From an uncultured Collinsella sp. (GTDB lineage Bacteria; Actinomycetota; Coriobacteriia; Coriobacteriales; Coriobacteriaceae), in the NCBI GenBank assembly GCA_958424475.1, contig CATZTY010000015.1:1-11470 (forward strand): a stretch of DNA of 11,470 nucleotides. The letters run 5' to 3'. The position numbers and the translations under genes are program-made. Below, in pieces: positions 7,110 through 7,593 of the stretch. The stretch's first letter is position 1. Each line of letters begins with the position of its first letter. Under the pieces are notes generated by a model that saw only the letters and a program-made list of their open reading frames with translations, made no database searches and was not told the origin of the DNA.

Positions 7110-7129
7110 GTAAAGGCAATATTTGGGGT

Positions 7130-7156
7130 GTGGCAAAGGGGCTGTCCCCTTGTCAC
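7130..7156. repeat. REP-like palindrome, copy 1 (degenerate)
   Basis: GTGGCAAAGGGG and CCCCTTGTCAC form imperfect arms around CTGT. The element is a diverged copy of the perfect palindrome at 7566-7592, sharing GGCTGTCCC and the trailing CATT. Such GTGACAAAGGG palindromes recur in intergenic DNA of gut anaerobes, which I recall but did not search. Confidence 0.65.
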
Positions 7157-7214
7157 ATTCAGCGACCGCCTAGGTTGTGCCAGTTGTGCCTGGCTTTTGG
7201 AGCGACATTGCCGA

Positions 7215-7243
7215 TTGTTCAAAATGTCATTCGTGGGTAGAAT
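7215..7243 (+). promoter_or_regulatory. Candidate convergent promoter for an antisense RNA
   Basis: TTGTTC (7215-7220), a 17-base spacer and TAGAAT (7238-7243, five of six consensus bases) point toward the small gene at 7312-7437 from its 3' side. The -35 lies inside an inverted repeat GACATT (7204-7209) / AATGTC (7223-7228). Transcription would begin near 7250. Confidence 0.35.
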
Positions 7244-7249
7244 AGTGTC

Positions 7250-7335
7250 GACGGCAGCCCAAGTTGTAGCTGGCTGGGCAACGCCGTTGTTTGCATTAGG
7301 GGGTCAACGCCTTAGCGGCGGCGACCCCTTCTGTT
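7250..7335 (+). ncRNA. Candidate antisense RNA (type I antitoxin-like)
   Basis: If the promoter at 7215-7243 is used, the transcript begins with a two-part stem (ACGGC 7251-7255 with GCCGT 7283-7287; GCCCA 7257-7261 with TGGGC 7275-7279). It then runs into the hairpin at 7300-7328 followed by TTCTGTT, a weak terminator-like tail. That gives an RNA of about 85 bases complementary to the stop codon and 3' region of the small gene. This is the layout of 3'-overlapping type I antitoxins such as RatA/TxpA. The evidence is structural only. Confidence 0.25.
7300..7328. terminator. Shared hairpin over the 3' end of the small gene
   Basis: GGGGTC (7300-7305) pairs with GACCCC (7323-7328), and inside it CGCC (7308-7311) pairs with GGCG (7317-7320). 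The stop codon of the small gene lies in the loop and its last Arg codons in the stem. Only the plus-strand side has a T-rich tail (TTCTGTT). Termination is thus likelier for the antisense transcript than for the small-gene mRNA. Confidence 0.45.
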
Positions 7336-7437
7336 GCGCTTCGAACGCTGCTTGAGTGCCTCGGAAAGGCCGACAAGCGCCGTGAAGAACGAGACCAAAG
7401 CGGTCAGAAGTCTCACGAAATCAATCAGATCGGTCAT
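7312..7437 (-). CDS. 41-residue hydrophobic/basic peptide, candidate type I toxin
   Basis: This short reading frame opens with ATG at 7437-7435 and ends with TAA at 7314-7312. It is preceded by GGGAGGTGA with eight bases to the ATG after GGAGG, the best Shine-Dalgarno in the window and the main reason I believe it is expressed. The product begins MTDLIDFVRL and continues with an uninterrupted hydrophobic stretch (about residues 10-24, LLTALVSFFTALVGL). It ends in a strongly basic tail (KQRSKRNRRGRRR). One membrane segment plus a cationic tail is the plan of small type I toxins and holin-like peptides (TxpA, BsrG, TisB types); I do not recognise a specific family. A LexA-like box and an extended -10 promoter lie upstream, and a possible antisense RNA converges on its 3' end. 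The C-terminal codons share bases with a hairpin. An alternative is a small regulatory membrane protein unrelated to toxicity. Confidence 0.6.
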   Translation of the reverse strand: MTDLIDFVRLLTALVSFFTALVGLSEALKQRSKRNRRGRRR

Positions 7438-7501
7438 GGGCATCACCTCCCATCAGATGGAGGGCGTTGCCCGGCACATGGAACTGCCGCCAACAGTATC
7501 A

Positions 7502-7510
7502 ATTCTATCA
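7502..7510 (-). promoter_or_regulatory. Extended -10 promoter of the small peptide gene
   Basis: The minus strand reads TGATAGAAT here: a TGn extension joined to TAGAAT (five of six -10 bases). A -35-like TTCGCA lies 18 bases upstream, overlapping the LexA-like box. Transcription would start near 7495, giving a leader of about 58 bases. Confidence 0.5.
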
Positions 7511-7527
7511 AAGCGCAGTTAGATATG

Positions 7528-7541
7528 CGAATGTTTGTTCG
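7528..7541. promoter_or_regulatory. LexA/SOS-box-like operator
   Basis: CGAATGTTTGTTCG matches the CGAAC-N4-GTTCG SOS box of Gram-positive and actinobacterial LexA except for one base of the left arm (T for C). It is centred about 40 bases upstream of the predicted start site of the small gene and overlaps the -35 position, where LexA would repress. Whether this organism's LexA uses that consensus is assumed. Confidence 0.45.
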
Positions 7542-7565
7542 TATTTCAAGAGACCAGCGTCACCT

Positions 7566-7592
7566 GTGACAAAGGGGCTGTCCCTTTGTCAC
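7566..7592. repeat. REP-like palindrome, copy 2 (perfect)
   Basis: GTGACAAAGGG and CCCTTTGTCAC form a perfect 11-bp stem with a 5-base loop. It ends one base before the stop codon of the phosphatase gene, so it may also act as that gene's transcript end. It is the intact relative of the copy at 7130-7156. Both elements flank the small-peptide locus. Confidence 0.75.
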
Positions 7593-7593
7593 A

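What the first reader, a model, noticed from the sequence alone, without database searches (positions are those of the whole stretch)
7312..7541. SOS-boxed 41-residue membrane peptide: a candidate new type I toxin locus
Seen: a small minus-strand gene with an excellent Shine-Dalgarno, one hydrophobic segment and a 13-residue basic tail. It has an extended -10 promoter (TGATAGAAT) and a CGAAT-N4-GTTCG dyad over the -35 position. Known: TisB in E. coli is a LexA-controlled small membrane toxin linked to persistence, and CGAAC-N4-GTTCG is the Gram-positive/actinobacterial LexA box. Inference: this is a DNA-damage-induced membrane peptide, a TisB-like arrangement I do not know to be described in Coriobacteriia.
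Basis: partly seen in the sequence, partly recalled or inferred. Interest (0 to 1): 0.75.

Follow-up and report, generated by a model that had tools for sequence, protein, structure and literature searches.

The report
SOS-linked antisense-controlled membrane peptide family
A tiny membrane peptide gene in a human gut bacterium (Collinsella) sits under a DNA-damage control box and faces a conserved opposing RNA gene, and the same two-part arrangement occurs in relatives across its class, so it looks like an unreported family of RNA-controlled self-toxins.

Summary
The 41-codon minus-strand ORF (7312-7437) is conserved in Collinsella, on chromosomes and small plasmids, with diverged relatives elsewhere in Coriobacteriia (Slackia, Adlercreutzia). 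The noncoding part covaries: the mRNA 5'UTR pairs with its own 3'UTR (cis -53, trans -40 kcal/mol) and a second helix covers the Shine-Dalgarno. A covariance model of the antisense RNA hits 80 of 296 Coriobacteriia genomes; a 296-genome Actinomycetota sample adds one weak hit. This is the anatomy of a type I toxin-antitoxin. LexA control is well supported: lexA and recA carry boxes of the same type, and the toxin's one-mismatch variant also fronts the Y-family polymerase gene in 6 of 6 genomes; plasmid-type copies lack it. It is no TisB homologue by Pfam. Toxicity, transcripts and induction are untested. Verdict: a new type I TA-like family in a phylum where my searches found none reported.

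The parts
7528..7541 (-). LexA-type box CGAACAAACATTCG (9 of 10 fixed bases of CGAAC-N4-GTTCG) over the -35 position
   Evidence: variant shared with the Y-family polymerase promoter
7502..7510 (-). extended -10 element TGATAGAAT of the toxin mRNA; start site predicted near 7495
   Evidence: conserved
7438..7495 (-). toxin mRNA 5'UTR; pairs with the mRNA 3'UTR and alternatively folds locally over the ribosome site
7463..7472 (-). GGGCAACGCC, 5' arm of the long-range helix (partner GGCGTTGCCC at 7276-7285)
   Evidence: 9-bp helix, 97.8% of cells paired in 40 sequences, changes on both sides at 3 pairs
7442..7464 (-). hairpin that buries the Shine-Dalgarno (anti-SD 7459-7464, SD 7442-7450)
7312..7437 (-). 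41-aa membrane peptide ORF including stop; candidate toxin
7300..7328 (+). hairpin across the toxin stop codon, predicted intrinsic terminator of the antisense RNA; U tract TTCTGTT at 7329-7335 lies in the codons of the basic tail
   Evidence: for the window the scan preferred another hairpin, this one is read by eye (it has an internal loop)
7276..7285 (-). GGCGTTGCCC in the mRNA 3'UTR, 3' arm of the long-range helix
7250..7336 (+). predicted antisense (antitoxin) RNA, about 90 nt; its first ~40 nt are a same-sense copy of the toxin mRNA 5'UTR; ends inferred
   Evidence: model R1 at 7235-7347, 99.6 bits; the window is one of its seeds
7238..7243 (+). TAGAAT, -10 of the antisense RNA
   Evidence: TANNAT at this place in 23 of 25 representatives
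7215..7220 (+). TTGTTC, candidate -35 of the antisense RNA, 17 nt from the -10 (read by eye; one search's consensus scan did not list it)

Best explanation
A chromosomal type I toxin-antitoxin module, SOS-controlled in this lineage. Shown by sequence: two convergent genes. One makes a structured mRNA for a short (37-43 residues in the 51-locus set) single-helix peptide. The other makes a ~90-nt RNA complementary to the mRNA's 3' part, ending in a terminator across the stop codon. Inferred: LexA on the box over -35 keeps the toxin promoter shut while the antisense promoter, where I saw no such box, stays on. Leaked mRNA is held silent by the hairpin over its Shine-Dalgarno and destroyed or locked by the antisense RNA at its 3' end (as with RatA or SR4 in Bacillus). 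DNA damage removes LexA, the mRNA outnumbers the antisense RNA, and the peptide inserts in the membrane, lowers its potential and slows growth. The 5'UTR-3'UTR helix is a regulatory switch: folding predicts slightly more open ribosome sites with the 3'UTR present (0.165 versus 0.050 unpaired), so I infer that antisense binding to the 3'UTR drives the 5'UTR back into its closed hairpin. Copies on plasmids, without the box, probably act as plasmid-maintenance modules.
For: Conserved coding frame, SD and start. Antisense -10 in 23 of 25 loci. Antisense-direction hairpin plus at least 5 T in 9 nt in 20 of 25 loci, against 3 of 25 in the sense direction; stop-codon hairpin z below -2 in 25 of 25. 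Long-range and SD helices: 46 double-change cells against 14.8 shuffled, 0 of 500 shuffles, and 2 to 13 for slid controls. Own 5'-3' duplex -53.3 against -40.5 kcal/mol with other loci's 3'UTRs, 0 of 20,000 permutations (26 loci). Mismatches lean to G-U in the mRNA sense, 33 against 18, P 0.024. Model R1 of the antisense RNA hits 80 of 296 class genomes, seed genomes included; of 27 non-seed hits that I picked and read, 14 have a hydrophobic small ORF with SD on the opposite strand. LexA: box 9/10 at the same place in 15 of 15 chromosomal-type copies of the set; the three boxes of Collinsella lexA are themselves 9/10 each in L025 and L026; of 20 CGAAC-N4-ATTCG sites in 6 genomes, 7 are toxin promoters and 6 are Y-family polymerase promoters. 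Chromosomal and plasmid copies.
Against: No transcript, toxicity or induction data. The SD is predicted buried with or without the 3'UTR, so the direction of the switch is weakly supported. The 5'UTR-antisense duplex shows no cis preference (-38.8 against -38.5, P 0.33), so a direct antisense block of the ribosome site is not supported. Numbers of pairs with double changes and of pair types do not exceed shuffles (109 and 131 of 500). 5'-3' complementarity fails in L101 (rank 18 of 25) and is unremarkable in L104 and L097. 13 of 27 non-seed model hits lack a clear toxin ORF. Three Collinsella copies (L012, L017, L052) have a toxin ORF without the antisense element next to it; in L052 a transposon has split the module, so survival without the adjacent antitoxin gene is possible. 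The box has a fixed mismatch and other regulators are not excluded. The polar stripe of the helix is not significant (P about 0.06; hydrophobic moment P 0.19-0.41).
Confidence: 0.76

Rival explanations
1. An SOS-induced small membrane regulator that is not a toxin (for instance a brake on division or on an ion transporter), with the antisense RNA as an ordinary expression control.
For: Same sequence evidence; LexA-type box; no toxicity data exist; purifying selection on the peptide; some copies persist with the antisense unit split off.
Against: Free variation of the tail, up to 4 matches per Collinsella genome, tandem copies, and plasmid copies without the box fit a toxin-antitoxin better than a housekeeping regulator.
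Confidence: 0.14
2. A small mobile element: the 5'-3' complementarity is a terminal inverted repeat of a ~230-bp element and the ORF is incidental.
For: Inverted ends, several copies per genome, different genomic contexts.
Against: The repeats lie just inside the two promoters and contain the 5'UTR up to the SD hairpin; double changes within copies; dN/dS below 1; several strains keep a copy at the same place downstream of the HAD hydrolase gene. Target-site duplications and empty sites were not looked for.
Confidence: 0.04
3. The type I module is right but the box is bound by a regulator other than LexA.
For: The mismatch in the second half-site is fixed, and the flanks extend the palindrome to ATACGAA-N6-TTCGTAT in several copies.
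Against: The same ATTCG variant precedes the Y-family polymerase gene in 6 of 6 genomes; lexA-type boxes at lexA and recA; one LexA per genome in 7 of 7 searched; 8/10 to 9/10 boxes at the same place in L101, L107 and L192 from other genomes.
Confidence: 0.2

Closest known systems
tisB/IstR-1 of E. coli
   Same: LexA-controlled small membrane peptide under an antisense RNA, with an inhibitory 5'UTR structure (PMC8309996, passages).
   Different: IstR-1 is encoded apart and pairs with the standby site; here the RNA is cis-encoded and overlaps the 3' end. No sequence relation shown: TisB_toxin Pfam E 0.11 in 2 of 19, none for the window peptide.
dinQ/AgrB of E. coli
   Same: LexA-controlled single-transmembrane peptide with an opposing small RNA (PMC3567139, passages).
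   Different: AgrB has a 31-nt antisense region to dinQ and counts as trans-acting; no 5'-3' inverted-repeat mRNA was described in the passages seen.
par (fst/RNA II) of pAD1
   Same: Convergent promoters, terminator hairpin lying in both RNAs, SD in a stem-loop, plasmid and chromosomal members (PMC7472228, passages).
   Different: par uses direct repeats, so the two RNAs are complementary at the 5' region; here the ends are inverted repeats, so the mRNA pairs with itself and the antisense RNA is a same-sense copy of the 5'UTR. No Fst profile match.
txpA/RatA and bsrG/SR4 of B. subtilis
   Same: cis-encoded antisense RNA overlapping the mRNA 3' end; SR4 binding changes the distant ribosome site (PMC4147584, passages).
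   Different: Different peptides; no LexA box was mentioned in the passages seen; here the predicted overlap reaches into the stop codon and tail codons.

Membership tests
type I toxin-antitoxin | small hydrophobic peptide ORF under selection | tested here: met
type I toxin-antitoxin | antisense RNA gene complementary to the toxin mRNA | tested here: met
   by sequence only: promoter, conserved body, terminator; the RNA itself is not shown
type I toxin-antitoxin | structured mRNA that hides its ribosome site | tested here: met
   covarying helix and folding; prediction only
type I toxin-antitoxin | peptide is toxic and the RNA neutralises it by base pairing | not testable with these tools
   needs expression experiments
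LexA (SOS) regulon | box of the lineage's own LexA type over the promoter | tested here: met
   9/10 match; lexA/recA boxes; shared variant with the Y-family polymerase promoter
LexA (SOS) regulon | LexA binding and induction by DNA damage | not testable with these tools
   no expression data held
TisB family (Pfam PF13939) | profile match | tested here: not met
   no match for the window peptide; E 0.11 at best in 2 of 19 relatives
Fst/Ldr family | profile match | tested here: not met
   no such Pfam hit in 19 members or NCBIfam hit in 5
Fst/par locus organisation | direct repeats giving 5' complementarity between the two RNAs | tested here: not met
   5'UTR:antisense duplex has no cis preference; the ends are inverted repeats

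The most novel reading that the evidence does not exclude
A new regulatory design for type I modules. The antitoxin RNA carries at its 5' end a same-sense copy of the toxin mRNA's 5'UTR, and it wins by displacing that 5'UTR from the mRNA's 3'UTR (strand displacement), which snaps the ribosome site shut. The terminator of the antitoxin is also read as the toxin's basic tail, so one stretch of DNA is both protein end and antitoxin end. The family is class-wide and several lineages independently put it under LexA.
Probability: 0.35. Interest if true: 0.82.

Novelty: new variant of a known kind. Interest (0 to 1): 0.74.

Why it matters
A 2025 paper states that type I systems were known only from Proteobacteria, Firmicutes and Tenericutes before its cyanobacterial case (PMC12390103, passages). 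A class-wide family in Coriobacteriia would put them in Actinomycetota and give a covariance model to find them. It would also offer a concrete, testable SOS-linked growth-arrest candidate in human gut bacteria, and a case where an antitoxin's terminator and a toxin's C-terminus share the same bases.

Tried and rejected
Known families: Pfam and NCBIfam gave nothing above cut-off for the peptides that I could call a family match, and Rfam nothing for the region (the three Rfam rows are far below their cut-offs). In one search single members had weak Pfam rows (best DUF6223, E 0.0014, one member; its cut-off is not shown in that table). PHROGs gave unknown-function families only, best E 0.0023 for another member. 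Phage origin: no tblastn match to phages, no relative in viral contigs with the narrow alignment. Direct antisense block of the 5'UTR, as in par: tested and not supported. Amphipathic stripe as in TisB: not significant. Simple box counting is weak on its own: 0.9% of 39-bp background windows reach 9/10, 3% reach 8/10 and 13% reach 7/10 (that background includes the loci themselves), so I relied on position and on the shared polymerase promoter.

Rows left out of the 51-locus set and its alignments: L021 (replaced 5' end), L023:2986 (truncated 5' end), the IPGPSEL-type degenerate copies, L012, L017 and L052 (no antisense element beside them), L110, L113 and L115, and near-identical duplicates. 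L021 and L023 also lack the box. L101 was kept. The 26 and 25 representatives and the 40 of A4 are my selections from that set.

Two steps were corrected: the -10 scan had a slicing fault and was redone; the terminator scan scored the window weakly because of an internal loop.

Full report
THE OBSERVATION. The dyad reads CGAACAAACATTCG on the toxin strand, 9 of the 10 fixed bases of CGAAC-N4-GTTCG. The protein database holds 264 relatives at E<=1 (best 120 listed); the few that bear an organism name are Collinsella. The window matches C. aerofaciens strain TSDC17.2-1.1 at 95.8% over 97% of a 521-base query, with the same neighbours, and the gene is annotated there as a hypothetical protein. 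Relatives also lie on three small C. aerofaciens plasmids of 23-30 kb, a little upstream of two metallophosphoesterase genes in each. In the genus, 20 of 43 genomes match at E<=0.001, with up to 4 matches, some degenerate.

A SECOND GENE. Aligning 23 loci and the window, I saw that the region past the stop codon is as conserved as the ORF. In the distant relative L056, whose peptide is 37% identical to the window's, the 3' noncoding block is nearly unchanged. Read on the + strand it looks like a gene: a -10 (TAGAAT at 7238-7243), a body, and a hairpin across the toxin stop codon followed by a U tract. TANNAT is present at that place in 23 of 25 representatives, the exceptions being L095 and L104. 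In the antisense direction the best hairpin is followed by at least 5 T in 9 nt in 20 of 25, in the sense direction in 3 of 25; the hairpin region has z below -2 in 25 of 25 against mononucleotide shuffles. The U tract of the antisense RNA falls in the A-rich Lys/Arg codons of the tail (best 9-nt window there 5.4 A on average; the ORF body averages 1.6 A per 9 nt, a best-against-mean comparison and so only indicative), and the hairpin arm reads as the GRRR-like end. This would explain why the tail is basic and yet varies.

BREADTH. An order-level peptide search matched 61 of 297 genomes at E<=0.05; many of the weakest rows look like chance hits in long frames. The better ones have short ORFs with the same flanks (37-43 residues in the 51-locus set). 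The profile of 19 peptides finds 510 proteins at E<=0.01 (7,984 candidates scored), with names such as Slackia sp. and Adlercreutzia equolifaciens. A covariance model of the antisense RNA (R1, 28 sequences, 112 positions, 9 base pairs) hits 80 of 296 Coriobacteriia genomes at E<=0.001, seed genomes included, up to 8 per genome. In a 296-genome Actinomycetota sample it hits 10, of which nine also match on the class list and one (G637, kinship not told) is weak at E 4.6e-4. I picked 20 regions with 27 non-seed hits and read them: 14 have a small hydrophobic ORF with a good SD in the expected place, one has a poorer SD, and 12 have none. The model therefore points to toxins it was not built on, but bare antisense elements also exist.

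RNA STRUCTURE. RNAalifold on 40 loci finds a 9-bp helix between 5'UTR and 3'UTR and a hairpin on the SD. Counted: 95.1% of cells paired, 46 double-change cells against 14.8 in shuffles (0 of 500), and 2-13 in slid controls. Counts of pairs with changes and of pair types did not exceed shuffles (109 and 131 of 500). A competing local helix (GGGCA with UGCCC beside the start codon) is 90% paired. Each locus's 5'UTR binds its own 3'UTR better on average than other loci's: -53.3 against -40.5 kcal/mol, 0 of 20,000 permutations; 13 of 26 beat all others, L101 fails. Because an inverted repeat would also arise if the antisense RNA simply copied the 5'UTR, I counted mismatches: 33 would be G-U in the mRNA, 18 A-C (P 0.024), which leans towards pairing in the mRNA. 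The 5'UTR and the antisense 5' domain do not pair preferentially in cis (P 0.33). Folding predicts the SD 16.5% open in the full mRNA and 5.0% without the 3' element (22 loci). The direction of this switch is inference.

SOS. All seven Collinsella genomes searched have one LexA (an eighth asked for was not held). The lexA upstreams that I printed in full orientation (L025, L026, L028) have three GAAC-N4-GTTC-type boxes, and a recA upstream (L031) has CGAACAGCCGTTCG. Each of the three lexA boxes is itself 9/10 in L025 and L026; lexA upstreams of eight further genomes, seven outside the genus list and G025 within it, carry similar boxes. The toxin box scores 9/10 at -104 in 15 of 15 chromosomal-type copies of the set and in none of 8 plasmid-type copies. 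'Plasmid-type' is a sequence group; some of its members lie on large contigs. CGAAC-N4-ATTCG is rare: 20 sites in six genomes, fewer than the reversed-pattern control. Seven of the 20 are toxin promoters and six, one in each genome, lie just upstream of the same gene, which matches impB/mucB/samB (Y-family polymerase) in Pfam (tested on one of them), a classic SOS target from general knowledge. The other seven are scattered, mostly within genes where I looked. Boxes of 8/10 or better at the same place occur in L101, L107 and L192; 7/10 in L109 (two copies), L114, L099, L196 and L201 (62 loci). Background is 3% for 8/10 and 0.9% for 9/10.

PEPTIDE. AlphaFold2 gives a single helix, residues 2-40, pLDDT 84. 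Selection keeps the sequence: dN/dS 0.11-0.70 in the 14 pairs with dS>0. A TisB-like polar stripe is suggestive only (P about 0.06). Membrane action is inferred from hydrophobicity and from the kind of system.

SPLIT COPIES. In L052 a transposon with an IS110-type transposase gene (Pfam DEDD_Tnp_IS110, E 1.5e-10) interrupts the tail codons, and the nearest antisense element lies about 4 kb away in L220. L012 and L017 have the same tail junction near contig ends and no strong element beside them. So the ORF can stand without an adjacent antitoxin unit; whether such copies are expressed is unknown.

NOVELTY. Paper searches: 'type I toxin-antitoxin' with 'Coriobacteri' 0 papers, with 'Collinsella' 1, with 'Eggerthella' 2, with 'Actinomycetota' 1; listings and abstract starts only, none about such a system by title and abstract. 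One search (with Actinobacteria and two more terms) listed 2, held 70 papers with 25 shown, and (Collinsella, LexA) listed 8 papers on other subjects. PMC12390103 (passages) says type I systems were known only from Proteobacteria, Firmicutes and Tenericutes. The library is open-access only. The kind is known; the peptide family, host class, inverted-repeat mRNA and shared tail/terminator are, as far as these searches go, new.

Noticed in passing
window 7129-7157 and 7565-7593: Two copies of a 29-nt palindrome (TGTGACAAAGGG-N5-CCCTTTGTCACA type) flank the module; its core occurs in 35 of 219 fetched loci, many of which overlap each other. It may be a repeat element or insulator.
   Followed up: partly
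L220:9220-13401 (L052); also L012, L017: A transposon with an IS110-type transposase splits one copy in its tail codons and separates the toxin ORF from its antisense element by about 4 kb; the same junction explains some of the variant tails.
   Followed up: partly
L016:4099, L023:2513, L054, L066, L070-L073, L055: Degenerate copies (IPGPSELVELL...) have lost start codon and ribosome site but several keep the antisense element with strong model scores; possible orphan antitoxins.
   Followed up: partly
G226:C112:1129143-1129377, G163:C52:11951-12218, G135:C1:944223-944548, G119:C33: Antisense elements in close tandem, some without an ORF beside them.
   Followed up: no
L002, L003, L004: Three C. 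aerofaciens plasmids carry the module without a LexA box, near two metallophosphoesterase genes and a DUF5067 gene.
   Followed up: partly
L010:296 and L101:803: Two copies have ATA in place of the start codon.
   Followed up: no
L142, L143, L144, L152: Canonical boxes CGAAC-N4-GTTCG in Collinsella also lie upstream of a RuvB/AAA-type ATPase, a GyrB-type ATPase and a GyrI-like protein, a start for a Collinsella SOS regulon.
   Followed up: no
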